This document shows, one piece after another, positions 12,648 to 61,144 of a stretch of 64,000 nt of DNA. The translations under genes were made by a program, and so were the position numbers. This DNA is from Physcomitrium patens (taxonomy: Eukaryota; Streptophyta; Bryopsida; Funariales; Funariaceae): the NCBI RefSeq assembly GCF_000002425.4, contig NC_037275.1, positions 10,774,533-10,838,532 of the forward strand, read 5' to 3'. The notes under the pieces are model-generated. The model was given only the letters and a program-made list of their open reading frames with translations. It did no database searches and had not been told where the DNA came from. The stretch's first letter is position 1. Each line of letters starts with the position of its first letter.

Positions 12648-12659
12648 CACTCTTGTCAA
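12648..12659 (-). promoter_or_regulatory. M1 putative self-primer binding site
   Basis: The sense strand is TTGACAAGAGTG, starting two bases inside the LTR boundary. It is a perfect 12-nt complement of CACTCTTGTCAA in the same LTR (sense strand of 12828-12839), just downstream of the TATA box. This is the geometry of Tf1-type self-priming. No tRNA primer match is evident. Confidence 0.65.
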
Positions 12660-12661
12660 AC

Positions 12662-13217
12662 TATCAGGGACATGAACTCCAAAGAAAGTTAATCTCAATG
12701 CACTCTTGTGTCACTCGAAAATACTTAGAAATCACTCAAAGGAGATAATATATTGAACTAGAATGGCTATTACCAAAGACTAGAAAACATGACGACTCTT
12801 GAAACTAGACTGGAAATGAGAAAGGAGTTGACAAGAGTGAAGAAGGCTTCACTCTTGTCTCTATATATATACTATCTAACTAGAGGCTACGTGGTGACGT
12901 TCTATAGGACCTCCAATATGTGTTGACTTTGTAGGACACTTGCCTTGACTTACAAGGCAAGTTTTTTTACATGTGGGCCACATAGTTAGCTTGGTCTTCA
13001 AGGTAACAACATGTGTGGCACATGGCCAACTTGTTGACCACGTTTTTAATCCAAAAAGTCAATTAAAGACACCTATGAAGTCAAAGTAGCATCTATGAAG
13101 CTTTTAGGAAGCTTTCATATCAAATACTATTGAATTAACTTACTTTTATCTATTTTTACTTACTTCTATTTATTTATATATGTAATTACCAGCTTACATG
13201 AGTATGGTTGTGAAACA
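12662..13217 (-). repeat. M1 5' LTR (F1)
   Basis: 556-bp F1 LTR in minus orientation, aligning throughout with the LTRs at 26696-27250 and 50867-51171. It contains a TATATATATA box near 12862-12871 and a hairpin with 13-bp perfect arms, GACAAGAGTGAAG and CTTCACTCTTGTC, around a 4-base loop. M1 has lost its 3' LTR, so no target duplication can be tested. Confidence 0.9.
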
Positions 13218-22467: not shown

Positions 22468-22589
22468 TTTTGACAAGAGTGCTAATTTATTATTTTTGTC
22501 TTGTTTTAGAAGTGAGTAGATTATTTCACTTCTATTGTTGTATTTTGAAGGTTGTAAATTACAACCAAATCCAAAAAGTTTTATTTCTA

Positions 22590-26159: not shown

Positions 26160-26695
26160 TATAAATATTTACATTTATCTCAATAGTTACTTATATAATT
26201 AGATAGAAGTAGGTAAATATAGATTAATTTCATAAAATCTTATAGAATAGCTTTTTAAAAGCTTCATAGACATAATTATGATTTTAGATGTATTTATGGG
26301 TTAGAAACTTAGTCAACAAACTGACCATGTATTGGTAGCTTGTCGAACAAGTTAACTTTACGTAGTAGCTTGTGAAATAAGTTAATTATGTGGCACATGC
26401 ATAGGTAACTTACTTTACAAGTTAAAACATGTAGCTAGCAAAGTCAACAAATGTTGGAGGTTCTATAGAATATTGCCACGTAGCTCTTAGTTAAAGAATA
26501 TATATGGAGGCAAGAGTGAAGCCTTCTTCACTATTGTCAATACCTTTCTAGCCCTTAGTCTCGCTTGAAGAATTTTTAGTCTTCTTGTTTTTGGTAATAG
26601 ACATTCTAGTTCAATATTATATCATTATTGATTAACTTTTTAGTTTTTTTCAGAGAGACAAGAATATATTGAGGATTTTTTTTTTTGAGATTCTG
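26160..26695 (+). repeat. F1 LTR, lacking its last bases
   Basis: Aligns with the F1 LTR family, but stops at TTTGAGATTC, about 12 bases short of the usual end, where the oppositely oriented LTR of M2 begins. Either P1's own 3' LTR after an internal deletion, or a separate LTR. No target duplication can be defined. Confidence 0.75.
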
Positions 26696-27250
26696 TTAAG
26701 GACAAGAACTTGATAAAAAAAATAAACAAGAGAGACTTCTCTCAAAGAAAGATAAAAAAATATAAATAACTCAATATATATATTAAGAAAGAAACTAGAA
26801 TGACTATTGTCAAAAGATAAGAAAATTAGAGATCCTTGAAACTAGATTAGAAGCATAAAAGGACTTGACAAGAATGAAGAGGGCTTCATTCTTATCTCTA
26901 TATATACTATCTAACTAGGGGCTACATGGCAATGTTCTATAGGACCTCCAATAAGTTTTGACTTTGTAGGATACATGCCTTGACTTACGAGATAAGTTTT
27001 TCAATATGTGGGTCACATAGTTAGCTTGGTCTTCAAGCTAACAACATGTGTGGCACATGGCCAACTTGTTGACCACGTTTCTAATCCAAAAAGTCAATTA
27101 AAGATACCTATAAAGTCAAAACAACAGCTATATTGCTTCTAAGAAGCTTTCATAGCAAATATTATAGAATTAACTTATTTTTACCTACTTTTACTTACTT
27201 CTATCTATTTATACATGTAATAACTAGCTTACATGCTTATGTCCATGACA
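26696..27250 (-). repeat. M2 3' LTR (F1)
   Basis: 555 bp from TGTTAAGGACAAG to GTCCATGACA, minus orientation. It aligns closely with the M1 LTR. Its internal edge is followed by TTACCTCACTTCTAG, the complement of the purine-rich AGAAGTGAGGTAA that primes plus-strand DNA synthesis. It lies head-to-head with the plus LTR at 26160-26695. Confidence 0.88.
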
Positions 27251-45034: not shown

Positions 45035-45594
45035 TATCGCAGCCATAATCATGTAAGCTAATAATTACATATAGAAATAGGTAGAAGTAAGTAAAAGTAA
45101 GTAAAAGTAAGTTAATTCTATAATATTTAATATGGAAGCTTCTTAGAAACTTCTTAGATGCTGCTTTGACTTCATAGGTGTCTTTAATTGACTTTTTGGA
45201 TTAGAAATGTGGTCAATAAGTTGGCCATGTGCCACACATGTTGTCAGCTTGAAGATCAAGCTAACTATGTGGCTCGCATGTAGAAAAACTTGCCTTGTAA
45301 GTCAAGGCATGTGTCCTACAAAGTCAATACATATTGGAGGTCCTATAGAACATCACCACGTAGCCCCTAGTTAGAGAGTATATATAGAGACAAGAGTGAA
45401 GGCTTCTTCACTTTTGTCAACTCCTTTCTTGCTTCTAGTCTAGTTTCAAGGGTCTCTAGTTTTCTTGTCTTTTGGCAATAGCCATTCCAGTTCCTCTTTC
45501 AATATATATACTTGTTTATATATATTTTGTTACATCTTTTTGAGTGAAGGCTCACTTGTCTGAATTGTTTTTTCATCGAGTTCTTGTCCTTGAC
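45035..45594 (+). repeat. N1 5' LTR (F1)
   Basis: About 560 bp, ending CCTTGACA at 45594. Its first bases (TATCGCAGCC) differ from the 3' LTR start (TGTTACGGCC), so the terminal TG is either lost or overlaps the duplication. It has one extra 10-bp GTAAGTAAAA unit relative to the 3' LTR. By eye about a dozen substitutions, mostly transitions, separate the two LTRs. TATATATA box near 45379; the self-priming segment at 45410-45420 has one C-to-T change. Confidence 0.9.
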
Positions 45595-45596
45595 AG

Positions 45597-45607
45597 ATTG
45601 ACAAGAG
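45597..45607 (+). promoter_or_regulatory. N1 putative self-primer binding site
   Basis: TTGACAAGAGT, two bases after the LTR. Complementary to ACTTTTGTCAA in its own 5' LTR with one G-U pair, and perfectly to ACTCTTGTCAA of its 3' LTR. Confidence 0.65.
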
Positions 45608-45807
45608 TACACCTATAATATCAGAGCTTTGTCTAATCTTGATTAAGAGTAGATTACCCCTTTTTCTTGATAAGATATAAGCGTATTAGAAGTTGTGGAT
45701 TACCCTCTTCTAAACTGATATTGTCCTTAGTATTTTCTTTGTCCGCAAGTCCTCTCTTCTATTTGTCTTGAGCGATATTAGACATCTTCTCTCTTCTAAG
45801 TGTTATC

Positions 45808-51171: not shown

Positions 51172-51493
51172 TGTCACGGACATACATATAATTACCTATA
51201 TGAATAGATAAAAGTATGTAAAAGTAGGTTAATTGTGTAATATCTTCTAGAGAAGCTTCTTAGAAGCTTCATAGATGCTGCTTTGACTTTATAGGAGTCT
51301 ATAGTTGACTTTTAGGTTAAAAACTTGGTCAACAAGTTAGCCATGTGCCACGCATGTTGGAAGCTTAAAGAACAAGCTAACTGCGTGGTCCATCCATAGA
51401 AAACTTGCCTTGCAAGCAAAGGCATGTGGCCTAGAAAGTCAACATATATTGGAGGTCTTATAGAACATCGCCACGTGGCTTCTAGTTAGATAG

Positions 51494-51501
51494 TATATAT
51501 A
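51494..51501 (+). promoter_or_regulatory. N2 LTR TATA box
   Basis: TATATATA, conserved at the same LTR position in the other F1 copies. A start about 30 bases downstream would fall at about 51525. Confidence 0.7.
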
Positions 51502-51505
51502 GAGG

Positions 51506-51531
51506 CAAGAGTGAAGCCCTCTTCACTCTTG
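51506..51531 (+). other. Conserved LTR hairpin
   Basis: Perfect 11-bp inverted repeat CAAGAGTGAAG / CTTCACTCTTG with a 4-base loop, just downstream of the TATA box. The hairpin is present in most F1 LTRs, with up to 13-bp arms in M1. Confidence 0.8.
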
Positions 51532-51535
51532 TCAA
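51525..51535 (+). promoter_or_regulatory. N2 predicted transcript 5' end and self-primer
   Basis: ACTCTTGTCAA, exact complement of the site at 51704-51714. It begins where transcription is expected from the TATA position. In Tf1 the first 11 transcript bases serve as primer; here the match is also 11 bases. Confidence 0.6.
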
Positions 51536-51703
51536 CTCCTTTCTTGCTTCTAGTCTAGTTTCAAGGGTCTCTAGTTTTCTTGTATTTTGGCAATAGCCAT
51601 TCCAGTTTCTTTCTTAATATACATATTTCTATTTTGTCCTATTTCTTTTTGAGAAAAGTCTCACTTACTCTTTAGCTTTCATCGAGTTCTTGTCCTTGAC
51701 AGA

Positions 51704-51714
51704 TTGACAAGAGT
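51704..51714 (+). promoter_or_regulatory. N2 putative self-primer binding site
   Basis: TTGACAAGAGT, two bases after the 5' LTR. It pairs perfectly with 51525-51535. The same position and pairing occur in M1, M3 and (with one G-U) N1. Confidence 0.7.
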
Positions 51715-51913
51715 ACACTTACAATATCAGAGCTTTGTCTTTTCTTGATTAAGAGTGGATTACCCCTTTTTCTTGATAAGACATAAGCGCATTAGAAGTT
51801 GCGGATTACCCTCTTTTAAACTGATATTGTTCTTAGTATTTTCTTTGTTATCAATTCCTCTCTTCTATTTGTTTTGAGCGTGGTTAGACATCTTCTCTTT
51901 TCTAAGTGCTACT

Positions 51914-52921
51914 ATGGCAGAGCTTGTTGAAATGAAGAGTGCAATGGCACAGATGCAAGAACAATTGAGGGAGTTAATGCTTGCGATGCATCAACTCAAT
52001 TTACCACCACAAGGAGCAACAAGAATGGTAGGAAGTGAAGATATAGAGATGATTGGGGCTGCTTCAACATCTGCACCAAACCATGTCCCTTCTCCCAGAA
52101 TGGAACACCCTTCGAGTGTTAGAGAACCGAGAGTTGCCTTGCCCGAGAAGTTTGATGGTACCAGATCCAAGTTTCGAGGATTCATCAATCAGGTCCAACT
52201 AGTGATTGAACTTCAACCCCAGAGCTATCCAACTCCAGGGTCACAAGTAAGATTCATTGGTACACTTCTTTCAGGTTCAGCATTGTCATGGTTTTCATCT
52301 TTTCTTGAACGACGAGATCCAATATTGGATAATCTGGAGGCTTTTTTGGCGGAGTTTTGATCCATGTTTGGAGAACATGATGCAATTCGTGTTGCAACCA
52401 ACAAGATCCGTATTTTGCGACAAGGCAATCGATCAGTAACATTATATGCTTCGCAATTTCGACAACTTGCAACTGATATCAAGTGGGATGATGCCGCACT
52501 TGTGAGTCAATTTCTCTACGGATTACAATATGAGGTAAAGAAATTGATGCTTAATTTACCTGATCCTCAAACATTGAGTCAAGCAATTGACTTTGCTGTG
52601 AAGTGCGACAATCGACTTTTTGAATTTCGATCCGAGAGTCGCACAAGTAGGCCTCAACGTTACTACAATTCAATGGCAACACCGACGTCTCCTCAACACA
52701 TACCTTCAGAAGTGGAGGATATGCAAATTGATGCGGTACGTTTCAAACCTCTTACTGAGTAAGAAAAGTCTCGTCGTCGACAAGAAGGATTGTGCTTATA
52801 TAGTGGAGAACCTAAGCACACTGCTCAACATTGTCCAAAGAAGCGACGTAACTACAAAACGAGGAGTACGGCTATCAAAGAAGACAGTATGTCGGAAAAC
52901 GAGTACGTCCAGCTACAATAG
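51914..52921 (+). pseudogene. gag: N2 F1 gag with two nonsense changes
   Basis: 335-codon Gag, the particle-forming protein. Start chosen at the first ATG after the leader, matching N1. Residues 1-30 are Met/Gln/Leu-rich and likely helical. The capsid-like core from about residue 77 (P-E-K-F-D-G-T-R-S-K-F) through S-G-S-A-L-S-W-F-S to A-I-D-F-A-V-K-C-D-N-R resembles the Gag core of Tf1/sushi-type gypsy elements and of the PEG10/RTL genes. The zinc knuckle at residues 294-307 reads C-L-Y-S-G-E-P-K-H-T-A-Q-H-C, with the second Cys lost. In-frame TGA at 52358 and TAA at 52760 each differ by one transition from an expected sense codon. The stop TAG at 52919 lies inside the pol frame. Confidence 0.92.
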
Positions 52922-55900
52922 GGACCGTGCGGCTGGAATCTTGTACAACTTCTAATGAAGGTCCTATCCTCTCCTCAGAACCATCTCCTTGTTTTATAAT
53001 AGATGTGCGTTTAGGACCTAATAATTACAAAGCCTCTGCCTTGATAGATTCAGGAGCCTCAGCTTGTTTCTTAGATGAAGAATTTGCTAGATGTCATAGA
53101 ATATCATTAATACAAAAAACTAAACCTGTACACGTAGAAGTCATAGATGGTCGTCCGTTGTCTTCTGGAGATGTAACTCACGAAACACTTCCTGTAGATG
53201 TAGTAATAAATGGTCATAGTAGTTGCGTAATTTTTAATATAATTAGATCTCCCTCTAATCCAGTAATTTTAGGCTTATCATGGTTAGAAAAGTATAATCC
53301 TCGAATAGATTGGATTTCTCGTAAACTTGATTTTCCTTGGAGCATTAGTAACAGTTCTATTAATCAAGTAAAAAACCATGAGTCTAGTATAGTAAAACCC
53401 GCACTTATAGGTGCAAAAGCATTTATACACGCAGCAAAAGAAGGATCAACTTTTGCTATTTATGCTGCACCTATTTCTGAAAGCGTAAAGACTTCAAGTG
53501 GCATTCCAAGTCAATATCAGGATTATCAAGACGTTTTTGAGAAAAAGAATGCAGATATTCTTCCTGAGCATCGTCCATACGATTGTTCAATCGATCTCAA
53601 GGAAGGAACTCAGCCACCATTTGGACCAATTTACAGTTTATCGCAAGATGAGTTGGCTGAACTCAAGACATATATTGACGAGAATTTAGCGAAGAATTTC
53701 ATACGCCATTCAAAATCTCCAGCAGGAGCTCCAATTTTATTCGTAAAGAAAAAAGATGGATCTTTACGAATGTGTGTTGACTATCGAGGACTCAACAAGA
53801 TCACAATCAAGAACAGGTATCCATTACCTTTGATATCAGGACTCCTTGACCAGTTAAATCAAGCTAAGATCTATACAAAAATAGATCTAAGAGGAGCATA
53901 TAATCTAGTACGGATCAAAGAAGGAGATGAATGGAAGACTGCGTTTCGAACCAGGTACGGACACTTTGAATACAATATCATGCCTTTTGGACTCACGAAT
54001 GCACCAGCTGCTTTTCAACATCTCATGAATGATGTATTTCGTGAATTCTTAGACAATTTTGTCGTCTGCTACCTAGACGATATCCTGATTTATTCTAAGA
54101 ATGTTGAAGAACATGAAATACATGTTCGTCAAGTATTACAAAAACTTAGAGATGCAGGATTGTACGCCAAGATAGAAAAGTGTGTATTTCACACTACTCA
54201 AGTTGACTTTTTAGGATACATCATTTCAAATGATGGTCTTATGATGGATTCTAAGAAAGTCCAAACAATCATGGATTGGAAGATTCCAAAGACTGTGAGA
54301 GATGTCCAATGTTTCTTGGGATTTGCCAATTACTATCGGATCTTCATCAAAGACTTCTCACGAGTTGCAGCTCCACTTACACGCTTGACTAGTAAAGATA
54401 AATTCCAATGGAATCAAGAAGCGGAAGCAGCATTTGAAGCCTTGAAGACATCGTTTGTCTCTGCACCAGTCTTATATCGTGTTGATTTTTCCAAGGCATT
54501 TTTTATGGAAACAGACGCATCGGATTTTGCCTTGGGTGCAGTTTTATCACAAATGGGAACAGATGACAAACTTCATCCGATAGCTTTTCATTCAAGAAAA
54601 TTCTCAGCAGCCGAGATCAATTATGAGATCCACGATAAAGAACTTCTTGCAATCATGGATTCCTTTCAAGAATGGCGTCATTATCTAGAAGGTGCTTCTA
54701 GTCCAGTCACTGTGTATACAGATCATAAGAACCTCGAGTATTTCATGTCAGCACGCGTGTTGAATCGTCGTCAAGCTCGTTGGAGTATGTCTTTGTCAAG
54801 ATTCGACTTCATTATCACTTATCGGCCAGGAAAACAACAAGGTTTGTCCGATGCCCTGTCTAGACGTTCTTATTTTGCACCAAAAGAAGGAGATGCAGCT
54901 TTTGAGCAACAAAGAATGGTCCTCTTGAAACCGGAGCAATTTCATCTCCGAGCAGTGAAATCAACATTGACTGTTGATTCAACTTTTCTCAAGCAAATCC
55001 AGTCCAGTATGTCCTCAGACCCTCTTGTTCATGATATCGAGAATAATTCTTCCAAGTCTCATGATTCTTCTAAGTTCGAGTTCAAGAATAATCTATTATA
55101 TTTTGAAGGACGCCTATATGTTCCAGAAGGAAAAGCACGTTTGCGTGTTCTTCAAGCACGTCATGACTTTCCAGCAGCAGGGCACTTTGGATATAATAAG
55201 ACTCTGGAACTCATATCAAGAGATTTTTGGTGGCCACAAATGTGGAAGTCAGTCAAAGACTTTGTACAATCATGTGATATTTGTTCAAGATCAAAAATTC
55301 CTCGACATCGACCTTACGGACTTCTTCAGCCATTACCTATACCAGAACAACCATGGTCTTCTGTTTCTATGGATTTCATCACAAATCTTCCAAACACAAG
55401 ATCTTATGATTCTATATTTGTGATAGTAGATCGTTTCACCAAGATGGCACATTTTATGCCATGTACAAAATCTATCACAGGTGAAGAAACAGCTAAGCTT
55501 TTCATTGATAATATCTATCGCTATCATGGATTACCTAAAGATATCATATCGGATAGGGGAACTCAATTTGTGTCGAGATTCTGGAGGACTCTTTTCAAGA
55601 TTTTAAAAGTGGACATAAAGCTATCCTCAGCTTTCCATCCTCAAACTGATGGACAAACAGAGCGCGTAAACCAAGTCTTGGAACAGTATTTAAGGTGTAC
55701 CATCAACTACCAACAAGATGATTGGACAAACCTTCTGCCATTGGCAGAGTTTGCTTATAATAATACGGTACATTCCTCCACGCAACAAACACCTTTCTTT
55801 GCCAATTATGGCTATCATCCACGACTTGATACTTTTGATTTTTCAAAAGTTGATAATCCTGCAGCAGAAGATATGACAAATCGGTTGTCAGAGTTACATG

Positions 55901-56415
55901 CAATAATGAAGGCGCAGTTGAAGAAAGCTCAAGAATGACAAAAGATAAATGCAGATGTATATCGTAAAGAGCAACCACAACTCAACGTGGGTGATAAGGT
56001 ATGGCTACTTCGTCGCAATATCAAGACCACTCGACCTTGTGACAAATTGGACTATCGTAGGCTTGGCCCCTTTTCTGTTTCTGAACAGATCAACCCAGTT
56101 GCATATCGGTTACATCTACCGGAGTCAATGAAGATCCATCCTGTATTCCACGTGTCTCTTCTTGAACCATATAAGACAGTGGATATACAAGGAAGAAGAC
56201 AAATGCCACCGCCTCCTATAGAAGTAGATAATAATGAAGAATTTGAGGTGGAAGAGATATTAGACTCAAGGCGGCGCCGAAATAAGCTGGAATATCTTGT
56301 TCATTGGCGCGGATATGATATTAGTGAGCGCACATGGAAGCCATCCAGGAATCTAGCAAATGCATCAGCTAAAGTCAAAGTTTTTCATCAACGACATCCA
56401 TCAAAACCAAGATGA
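52816..56415 (+). pseudogene. pol: N2 F1 pol, full length with a single stop
   Basis: Pol polyprotein, open from 52816 and overlapping gag by about 100 bases in the -1 frame. Counting from the codon at 52927: protease with D-S-G at 41-43; RT with V-D-Y-R-G-L-N and Y-L-D-D at 382-385; RNase H with catalytic Asp at 530 and 599; integrase zinc finger H746, H753, C783, C786; integrase triad D816, D876, E912 (D,D35E); chromodomain at about 1105-1160 with Y-L-V-H-W-R-G-Y and R-T-W-K-P. All catalytic residues are present. One in-frame TGA at 55936, a CGA-to-TGA type change between integrase core and C-terminal domain. RT wording ([21 protein letters not shown]) is fungal-type. The chromodomain presumably tethers integration to marked chromatin. 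Confidence 0.95.
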
Positions 56416-56651
56416 AAACCTCTCTTATAAAAGAGACAAGATTGAGGCAAGATAACATTCAATTTCCTATCCTTGTTTGTGGCTTCTTTGCATTTGTGAC
56501 GCTAATTAGATGGAGAGCCAACAACCAGCGGATTCAACTCAAGAACCTTCGTTTGCTGACTTACCGGATGAGACATTGCGATTGTCACAACCTTCAAGAC
56601 GACGCAACCGAGATGAAGATCCTCAAGAACGACATGTTCTTCCTCGAATAG
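56412..56651 (+). other. N2 small hydrophobic frame overlapping pol stop and ORF3
   Basis: 79 codons. The ATG overlaps the pol stop as ATGA, the arrangement used by some elements for termination-reinitiation. Hydrophobic run I-Q-F-P-I-L-V-C-G-F-F-A-F-V-T-L, then I-R-W-R-A-N-N. The second half overlaps ORF3 in a different frame, so its conservation may be a by-product of ORF3. Its first part, upstream of 56510, is free of that constraint and is still similar in three copies. Confidence 0.4.
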
Positions 56652-56932
56652 ATGGTGAGATACAACGCATTTGGTATCACGACCTTGGAAGAGATTCTCG
56701 ATGTTTGGTGATATTATTGGAGATAGGAACGACTCCTGATGGTGTTTCAAATGTATTATTTGAAGGAAGTTATGAAGGCCTCAACAGTGATCAAATAACA
56801 GGGTGGTCTTCTCGCCCTGGAATGGGACACTATCGATGGCTAAGAGGACCCATCAACTATCTTCAAAGAGAACAAAGATCAGAGTATGTAGCAAATATAA
56901 TTCGCCGCATATTAGATTTTCTCAATATATAA
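56510..56932 (+). CDS. N2 ORF3, conserved accessory protein of unknown function
   Basis: Intact 140-codon frame 94 bases after pol and 41 bases before the 3' LTR. Start M-E-S-Q-Q-P-A-D-S-T-Q-E-P corresponds to the other copies. Arg-rich patch near residue 30 (S-R-R-R-N-R-D-E-D). Central R-I-W-Y-H-D-L-G-R-D-S-R-C-L-V-I-L-L-E, then L-F-E-G-S-Y-E-G-L-N-S-D-Q-I and C-terminal Y-V-A-N-I-I-R-R. No membrane segment, zinc motif or similarity to env, integrase or RNase H that I can recognise. Likely made from a spliced or downstream message. What it does is unknown. Confidence 0.75.
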   Translation: MESQQPADSTQEPSFADLPDETLRLSQPSRRRNRDEDPQERHVLPRIDGEIQRIWYHDLGRDSRCLVILLEIGTTPDGVSNVLFEGSYEGLNSDQITGWSSRPGMGHYRWLRGPINYLQREQRSEYVANIIRRILDFLNI

Positions 56933-56959
56933 TCACCGCTCCTCGTGGAACTCGTCCCT

Positions 56960-56970
56960 AGAAGGGGGGG
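56960..56970 (+). promoter_or_regulatory. N2 polypurine tract
   Basis: AGAAGGGGGGG, three bases before the 3' LTR, is the expected RNase H-resistant primer for plus-strand synthesis. Equivalent tracts precede the 3' LTRs of N1, M2 and M3. Confidence 0.85.
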
Positions 56971-56973
56971 TAA

Positions 56974-57503
56974 TGTCACGGACATACATATAATTACCTA
57001 TATGAATAGATAAAAGTATGTAAAAGTAGGTTAATTGTGTAATATCTTCTAGAGAAGCTTCTTAGAAGCTTCATAGACGATGCTTTGACTTTATAGGAGT
57101 CTATAGTTGACTTTTAGGTTAGAAACTTGGTCAACAAGTTAGCCATGTGCCACGCATGTTGGAAGCTTAAAGAACAAGCTAACTACGTGGTCCATCCATA
57201 GAAAACTTGCCTTGCAAGCAAAGGCATGTGGCCTAGAAAGTCAACATATATTGGAGGTCTTATAGAACATCGCCACGTGGCTTCTAGTTAGATAGTATAT
57301 ATAGAGGCAAGAGTGAAGCCCTCTTCACTCTTGTCAACTCCTTTCTTGCTTCTAGTCTAGTTTCAAGGGTCTCTAGTTTTCTTGTATTTTGGCAATAGCC
57401 ATTCCAGTTTCTTTCTTAATATACATATTTCTATTTTGTCCTATTTCTTTTTGAGAAAAGTCTCACTTACTCTTTAGCTTTCATTGAGTTCTTGTCCTTG
57501 ACA
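56974..57503 (+). repeat. N2 3' LTR (F1)
   Basis: 530 bp. About five differences from the 5' LTR, clustered at 57079-57081 and at three single sites further on. Ends CCTTGACA followed by ATAGA. Confidence 0.95.
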
Positions 57504-60601: not shown

Positions 60602-60612
60602 ACTCTTGTCAA
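60602..60612 (-). promoter_or_regulatory. M3 putative self-primer binding site
   Basis: The sense strand is TTGACAAGAGT, two bases inside the LTR. Exact complement of the sense strand of 60780-60790 in the same LTR. Confidence 0.6.
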
Positions 60613-60614
60613 AC

Positions 60615-61144
60615 TGCCAACGATATGAAGCTCAAAGAAAGAAATCTTGAATACACTCTTGTATCACTCAAAAGAACTAAAAAGTCACTCAAAGATGATA
60701 TAGTATTAAACTAGAATGGCCATTGCTAAAGACAAGAAGACAAGAAAATCTTAAAATAAGACTAAAGATTAAAAAGATATTGACAAGAGTGAAGAAGGCT
60801 TTAGTCTTGCTTCTACATATACTCTTAACTAAGAATTACATAGCAGTGTCCTATAAAACCTCCAAAATGTGTTGATTTTTGCAAGATACATATCTTAATT
60901 TGCAAGGCAAGTTTTCTATATAAGTGTCATATAGTTAGCTTGTTTTATAAGCTATCAAAATATGGTTAATTTTTTGATCAAGTTTTTAATCTACCAATCA
61001 ACTACAGATAAATCTGAAGTCAAAGCAACATCTATAAAGCTTCTAAAAATCTTTTTTAGAAAATATTATAAAATAAATCTACTTTTATCTACTTCTATTT
61101 AATCATATAGATAAATATAAGAGTAAATATATATATCCATGACA
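60615..61144 (-). repeat. M3 5' LTR (F1)
   Basis: 530 bp, TGCCAACGATATG to CCATGACA on the plus strand. Collinear with the M3 3' LTR at 42602-43119, but with many differences, so M3 is old. It retains hairpin arms and the self-priming segment. Confidence 0.87.

What the first reader, a model, noticed from the sequence alone, without database searches (positions are those of the whole stretch)
51525..51714. Self-primed reverse transcription predicted for the F1 chromoviral family
The 11 bases ACTCTTGTCAA, about 30 bases downstream of the LTR TATA box, are an exact complement of TTGACAAGAGT located two bases after the 5' LTR. The same pair occurs in M1 (12 bases: 12828-12839 with 12648-12659), M3 (60780-60790 with 60602-60612) and N1 (45410-45420 with 45597-45607, one G-U). 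The primer-site half is also intact in P1 (22470-22480). Tf1 of fission yeast and its relatives prime reverse transcription with the first 11 bases of their own transcript. A tRNA primer match at the usual place is absent. Self-priming in a probable plant chromovirus would be unusual.
Basis: partly seen in the sequence, partly recalled or inferred. Interest (0 to 1): 0.86.

Follow-up and report, generated by a model that had tools for sequence, protein, structure and literature searches.

The report
Self-priming retrotransposon in a moss
Very abundant retrotransposons, probably of a moss, appear to start copying themselves from the first 11 letters of their own RNA instead of a borrowed tRNA, as a fission-yeast element does, and they carry an unexplained hairpin exactly at that spot.

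Summary
In detail: the 11 bases at 51525-51535 are an exact complement of 51704-51714, two bases after the 5' LTR; M1, M3 and N1 repeat it (N1's site was given one base off). None of 20 own-genome tRNA genes tested fits (initiator tRNA untested). Within-family covariation at one position was not seen, and predicted folding weakens in longer RNAs. The genome (470 Mb) is very probably Physcomitrium patens and F1 very probably RLG1, a Tf1/sushi-type (Tcn1-clade) chromovirus, both inferred. Self-priming is already predicted for that clade, so this is a well-supported new case of a known kind. What I did not find described is a 12-13 bp inverted repeat whose 3' arm ends exactly at +9 and which covaries too; it could sequester primer copies that are not at a true RNA 5' end. 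Transcript starts remain unmapped.

The parts
51172..51701 (+). 5' LTR of F1 (TGTCA...TGACA)
   Evidence: 99% identical second LTR and 5-bp duplication ATAGA
51494..51501 (+). TATA box, 31 bases before predicted +1
   Evidence: 31 bases in 20 of 20 sampled copies
51504..51516 (+). 5' arm (U3) of the inverted repeat at the transcript start, GGCAAGAGTGAAG
   Evidence: 13 pairs, one of them G-U; 0 of 2000 shuffles
51521..51533 (+). 3' arm of the inverted repeat, CTTCACTCTTGTC, -4 to +9
51525..51535 (+). Predicted self-primer, first 11 bases of the RNA, ACTCTTGTCAA
   Evidence: exact complement of the site; geometry and covariation
51702..51703 (+). 2-base spacer GA between LTR end and site (probably the bases removed by integrase)
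   Evidence: 2 bases in the cases printed; role inferred
51704..51714 (+). Primer-binding site TTGACAAGAGT
   Evidence: the 23-mer LTR end + site has 2060 exact copies in the genome, reversed control 0
51561..51568 (+). TCAAGGGT, +37 to +44, may pair with the LTR end
   Evidence: 8 pairs, shuffle p 0.020
51692..51699 (+). GTCCTTGA at the LTR end, partner of 51561-51568 (U5-IR-like duplex)
51721..51730 (+). Leader stem, left arm ACAATATCAG (overlaps the TATCAGAGC motif)
51821..51830 (+). Leader stem, right arm CTGATATTGT
51914..52762 (+). gag region (DUF4939, Retrotrans_gag), one in-frame stop
52927..55938 (+). pol: protease, RT, RNase H, integrase, up to an in-frame stop
   Evidence: Pfam; stop
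55987..56415 (+). End of pol, same frame: Tf2-1-like SH3 domain and chromodomain
   Evidence: Pfam; frame
56974..57503 (+). 3' LTR of F1; inverted repeat from 57306, primer copy 57327-57337
45410..45420 (+). N1 primer copy ACTTTTGTCAA (one G-U)
45598..45608 (+). N1 primer-binding site
12828..12839 (-). M1 primer, read on the minus strand
12648..12659 (-). M1 primer-binding site, minus strand
60780..60790 (-). M3 primer, minus strand
60602..60612 (-). M3 primer-binding site, minus strand
22470..22480 (+). P1 primer-binding site (its primer copy is decayed)

Best explanation
F1 is a self-primed chromovirus that works like Tf1. Pol II starts the RNA at the A of 51525. The first 11 bases fold back onto the site two bases after the LTR. 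RNase H would cut after base 11, giving a 3' end from which minus-strand DNA is made. The cDNA would then end 2 bases beyond the LTR, and integrase would remove those 2 bases. Because plus-strand synthesis would copy the primer, each cycle would rewrite the site from the RNA's 5' end and keep the two segments matched. Shown here: exact complement, fixed geometry, covariation between families, LTR ends that fit a primer at LTR+3. Inferred: the transcript start, the cut, the extension, the trimming, the rewriting.
For: Exact pair in F1, M1 and M3, and N1 with one G-U. Four primers with their own matching sites: F1; family B of the same genome (AGTCTCGACAA, 3 of 3 elements; LTR ends fixed by 5-bp duplications in 2 of 3; TGACAGT plus its site has 1676 exact copies, reversed control 0); L003/L005; L004. 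Against other families' sites only 4-8 of 11 pair. Primer exact in 16 of 20 sampled F1/N1 copies and 17 of 20 sampled B copies. TATA to +1: 31 in F1 and 20 of 20 copies, 31-33 in L003-L006, 32 in 19 of 20 and 30 in one B copy. No TGG at the site and no fit to 20 tRNA genes. Modelled leaders to 60 bases past the site form the duplex at 0.91 or more in 7 of 8 elements, N1 0.69; B: 0.70, 0.70, 0.94 at 60 bases and 0.91-0.93 at 300. Tf2-type SH3 and chromodomain.
Against: No transcript 5' end was seen. With 300 and 450 bases of RNA beyond the site the duplex falls to 0.00/0.00 in F1, 0.01/0.00 in N1, 0.03/0.36 in M1, 0.76/0.00 in L006 and 0.53/0.93 in L003. Copies whose site changed to ..GAAT do not carry the matching primer change clearly more often: 6 of 29 distinct copies against 3 of 20, so those changes look like decay after insertion. 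Of 24 MAG loci scanned on their LTR side only 4 show the pair in place; in most of the rest I could not identify an LTR end. The second, crossing duplex of the Tf1 'pretzel' beat shuffles in none of 8 (lowest p 0.064).
Confidence: 0.93

Rival explanations
1. Initiator tRNA-Met primes from the downstream motif TGGTATCAGAGC (F1: CAATATCAGAGC), and the self-complementary pair is incidental.
For: The moss initiator tRNA itself could not be fetched.
Against: It is 23 bases from the LTR, yet the 3' LTRs of the three B elements end at TGACA, which a primer there would not give. TGG stands there in 3 of 20 sampled B copies, AGA, TAA or TAG in the others; F1 has CAA and N1 TAA. With 150-300 bases of leader the motif is mostly paired. 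It gives no reason for the covariation.
Confidence: 0.03
2. The pair is a sequence motif inherited by descent and pairing does not matter.
For: F1, N, M and P share one 11-mer, and within the family the one position tested shows no covariation.
Against: Between F1 and B the primer changed at +2, +6 and +8 with matched changes in the site, and between F1 and L003 at seven positions; L004 has a one-base longer primer and a one-base longer site.
Confidence: 0.02
3. The inverted repeat at +1 is a DNA-level promoter feature, or a by-product of reverse transcription (a copy of the site sequence caught in U3), and does not act in RNA.
For: It sits between TATA box and start in each case seen; its 5' arm has the same sense as the primer site; L004 lacks it and still has an intact pair. 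In the folds, part of the loss of the primer duplex in F1 comes from upstream bases other than the arm (0.33 at -8).
Against: The sequences differ widely between groups while the 4-base loop and the +9 end are kept, and a pair outside the primer (-2) changed on both sides between L003 and L001, so structure rather than a bound sequence seems to be kept.
Confidence: 0.5

Closest known systems
Tf1 and Tf2 of Schizosaccharomyces pombe (and Tj1 of S. japonicus)
   Same: Primer site complementary to the first bases of the RNA (11 in Tf1, cut by RNase H between 11 and 12; PMC7175516, passages; Tj1: PMC4600332, passages); Tf2-type SH3 and chromodomain in F1.
   Different: Probable moss host; U3 hairpin over the start (not checked in Tf1); only one of the two flanking pretzel duplexes was seen, and only in some elements.
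Tcn1 clade of plant chromoviruses (REXdb; moss and club-moss)
   Same: Host group and Tf1/sushi affinity; Neumann et al. predict self-priming for the majority of members, detected as at least 10 complementary bases starting 0-5 bp after the LTR (PMC6317226, passages). F1 meets this.
   Different: The passages I saw report no covariation test, start-site geometry or hairpin; for a Selaginella member no priming mode was found (PMC2864245, passages).
RLG1 of Physcomitrium patens
   Different: No RLG1 reference sequence was available to compare; 'self-priming' does not occur in that paper's main text.
Conserved Hairpin Site of fungal GalEa copia elements
   Same: A conserved hairpin at the priming region of an LTR element without tRNA site (PMC5445492, passages).
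   Different: It lies after the 5' LTR, not at the transcript start, and its authors detected no complement in the LTR.

Membership tests
Tf1/sushi group, Tcn1 clade | Site of at least 10 bases complementary to the 5' LTR, 0-5 bases after it | tested here: met
   11 bases, 2 bases after the LTR
Tf1/sushi group, Tcn1 clade | Chromodomain (and Tf2-type SH3 domain) at the end of pol | tested here: met
   PF00385 1.1e-14, PF24626 2e-22
Tf1/sushi group, Tcn1 clade | RT-RNase H-integrase tree places it with Tf1/sushi and Tcn1 | tested here: inconclusive
   Among the best 120 of 7968 hits the organisms named are four fungi (Cunninghamella 54%, Powellomyces and Batrachochytrium 50%, Absidia 49%) and the alga Closterium (44%). 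The 38-row tree groups F1 with unnamed elements; no Tf1, Tcn1 or seed-plant-clade reference was in it
Tf1/sushi group, Tcn1 clade | No tRNA primer site at the LTR | tested here: met
   No TGG at the site; 20 tRNA genes of 5 isotypes do not fit; other isotypes and initiator tRNA not tested
Tf1-type self-priming | Transcript starts at the first base of the complement | not testable with these tools
   Only indirect: TATA about 31-33 bases upstream, C/A start
Tf1-type self-priming | RNase H cut between bases 11 and 12 | not testable with these tools
   The complement ends at base 11 in F1, L003, L005 and L006; in L004 it is 12 long
Tf1-type self-priming | Pretzel: two further duplexes flank the primer duplex | tested here: inconclusive
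   LTR-end duplex p 0.004-0.020 in F1, N1, L003, L004, L005; no signal in M1, M3, L006; the other duplex in none of 8
RLG1 of Physcomitrium patens | Sequence identity to the RLG1 reference | not tested

The most novel reading that the evidence does not exclude
The self-primer is guarded by a hairpin lock. In U3 a 5' arm pairs with bases -4 (or -3) to +9. An RNA that starts at +1 lacks this arm, so its primer is free to find the site. The copy of the primer in the 3' LTR, and the primer of any read-through RNA that starts upstream, are held in a 12-13 bp hairpin. The element would thus license only its own correctly started 5' end as primer, and protect its 3' R for strand transfer.
Probability: 0.35. 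Interest if true: 0.75.

Novelty: new member of a known kind. Interest (0 to 1): 0.5.

Why it matters
If true, one of the most numerous elements of what is very probably a model plant genome replicates without a tRNA, as Tf1 does, with thousands of copies whose primer and site can be compared. The hairpin makes a neglected question testable: how does a self-primed element tell the primer at its 5' end from the identical copy in its 3' LTR and from read-through RNA? RLG1 is expressed in ordinary protonema (PMC7466625, passages), so if F1 is RLG1 the 5' end can be mapped directly.

Tried and rejected
Rejected: a fungal host with RIP (C>T decay occurs before all four bases, most before G, without a CA bias, F1 taken as reference; a second retroelement has moss hits); tRNA-Met priming from the leader motif. 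A seed-plant-type chromovirus is unlikely from the named relatives, but no clade reference was compared.

Led nowhere: IMG/VR gave no relatives in two scans. Within-family covariation at +2 was not seen; the 28 comparison rows hold 8 copies twice (20 distinct), and its 32 test rows hold 2 duplicates and one row without TATA, which I dropped (29 distinct). A search with the L003-type protein found nothing nearer than 58% among the 39 candidates scored. The competition fold is biased towards the 3' copy by its short linker. With the arm present the 3' copy sits in the hairpin at 0.95 or more in F1, N1, M1, L003, L005 and L006, but the 5' duplex is then still weak in F1 (0.02-0.22), N1 (0.00) and L006 (0.03-0.08). 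Without the arm the 3' copy takes the site in F1, L005 and L006, whereas in L003 with 8 upstream bases the 5' copy keeps it. L023 has only a 9-base complement, 44 bases after its TATA box: not counted. L001's 5' LTR has a site that matches its U3 arm but a decayed primer: not counted.

Full report
What is there. F1 is a chromovirus-type LTR retrotransposon at 51172-57503, flanked by ATAGA on both sides, with LTRs that differ at 5 of 530 positions. Its proteins are a gag with DUF4939 and Retrotrans_gag, then protease, RT, RNase H and integrase, a Tf2-1-like SH3 domain and a chromodomain. This copy is broken: gag and pol each have one in-frame stop. The predicted RNA start at 51525 lies 31 bases after the TATA box; the first 11 bases are an exact complement of the 11 bases that begin 2 bases after the 5' LTR. 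Of 13 LTR copies aligned in the window, six are followed by the site (five exact, one decayed) and seven are not.

Host. The window is C23:10774533-10838532 of a genome of 470,438,890 bases. A second retroelement of the window has Physcomitrium patens proteins as its only named hits, 2 of 16, at 62-63%. The assembled P. patens genome is given as 462.3 Mb, and RLG1, a chromodomain gypsy family with 5092 complete elements, fills 47% of its class I space (PMC7466625, passages). I infer P. patens and RLG1; neither was proven by a reference sequence.

Covariation between families. Relatives of the F1 pol were found in contaminated prokaryotic MAGs (31 loci). In four (L003-L006) the LTR side showed a recognisable pair: AAGGCGAACAA (L003, L005), ACTCTTGATCAA (L004) and AGTCTCGACAA (L006), each with the exact complement 2 bases after TGACA, and with a TATA box 31-33 bases before it. 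In the window's own genome a protein search (45 of 60156 candidates scored) separated two groups. The F1 type has the F1 site in 3 of 3 elements read (L090-L092). The other, here called B, has TTGTCGAGACT in 3 of 3 and the primer AGTCTCGACAA 138 bases upstream. F1 and B differ at +2, +6 and +8, on both sides each time. LTR end plus site occurs exactly 2060 times for F1 (23-mer) and 1676 times for B (18-mer); the reversed patterns occur 0 times. In the first 20 listed copies of each, all on C1, the primer is exact in 16 and 17.

Why the site is the primer site. In B the match between 5' and 3' LTR stops at TGACA in two elements and runs 3 bases past it in the third; the two have 5-bp duplications (CCCTT; ACATA, the match starting one base early) that confirm the end, the third has none. 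The site begins 2 bases after TGACA. From general knowledge of retroviral integration, integrase removes the last 2 bases of the cDNA; a primer whose 3' end pairs at LTR+3 gives exactly this end. A primer at the downstream motif TGGTATCAGAGC would give LTRs 23 bases longer. That motif has TGG in only 3 of 20 sampled B copies.

Folding. RNA from +1 to 60 bases past the site forms the duplex at 0.91 or more in 7 of 8 elements and 0.69 in N1. With 300 and 450 more bases it is lost in F1 and N1, low in M1, and lost in L006 at 450; it holds in L004 and L005, is 0.53 then 0.93 in L003, and 0.72 in M3 at 300. In B it is 0.70, 0.70 and 0.94 at 60 bases and 0.91-0.93 at 300. A U5-IR-like duplex between the leader and the LTR end beats shuffles in F1, N1, L003, L004 and L005, not in M1, M3 and L006.

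The hairpin. In F1, N1, the N remnant, M1, copy f, L006, L001 (3' LTR), L003 and L005 a 12-13 bp inverted repeat with a 4-base loop lies over the start; its 3' arm ends at +9 in all nine. Eight elements were tested against shuffles: in six (F1, M1, L003, L005, L006, L001) 0 of 2000 shuffles reach it; the other two, L004 and M3, have no such repeat (517 and 1199 of 2000). B has it in 3 of 3. In the samples, 18 of 20 F1/N1 copies pair at 13 of 13 positions, G-U allowed; of 20 B copies 7 pair at 13, 9 at 12 and 4 at 9-11. The changes between F1 and B at +2, +6 and +8 are mirrored in the U3 arm as well as in the primer site: a three-way covariation (with L006, which has the B primer). Between L003 and L001 the pair at -2, outside the primer, changed on both sides. 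When the modelled RNA starts at -40, so that it holds the U3 arm, the primer-site duplex falls to 0.00 in F1, N1, M1, L003 and L006 and in B, 3 of 3; from -25 it is 0.20 in L005. L004, without a hairpin, stays at 0.98 and M3 at 0.50-0.92. Not all of the loss is due to the arm: at -8, before the arm begins, F1 is already at 0.33 and N1 at 0.65. I propose, as inference, that the hairpin keeps wrong primer copies (3' LTR, read-through RNA) out of use. Its absence in L004 shows that it is not essential for self-priming as such.

What is known. Self-priming by the first 11 bases is established for Tf1 (PMC7175516, passages), stated as a common feature of the Tf1/sushi group, which includes non-seed plant elements (PMC10085805, passages), and predicted for the majority of Tcn1-clade elements of moss and club-moss (PMC6317226, passages). 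So the priming mode is not new. Nine full-text searches were answered, of which four aimed at structures of self-primed elements; in their listings of at most 20 papers, and in the passages I opened, I saw no inverted repeat over the start of a self-primed element. The library lacks most subscription papers, including Levin 1995, so this is no proof of absence in print.

Noticed in passing
51721-51730 with 51821-51830; also L090-L092 and B leaders L093-L095: A leader motif TATCAGAGC is shared by F1, N1 and most B copies seen, and in F1 its front part pairs with CTGATATTGT about 100 bases on. It matches part of the plant initiator tRNA-Met site (recalled) and might be a vestige of tRNA priming or a packaging or dimer signal.
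   Followed up: partly
L093-L095: B leaders carry a tandem repeat (GAGAGTGGATTACCCC ... GTTTTAGAGGTTGCGGA ...) between the site and gag (seen).
   Followed up: no
26161-26693 (+) and 26694-27224 (-): Two LTRs of opposite direction abut tail to tail, by the ends of their BLAST matches.
   Followed up: no
window, chromovirus copies: Old copies lie in stretches of 20-25% G+C and differ from F1 mostly by C>T in all sequence contexts, as expected for methylation beyond CG.
   Followed up: partly
L001-L006 and other MAG loci: Public prokaryotic MAGs (for example a Trichormus bin and a Synechococcales bin) contain eukaryotic retrotransposon contigs.
   Followed up: no
55936-55938, and the 1187-aa group: F1 pol has one in-frame TGA, and most F1-type frames listed also show one TGA; whether it is the same, inherited stop was not examined.
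   Followed up: no
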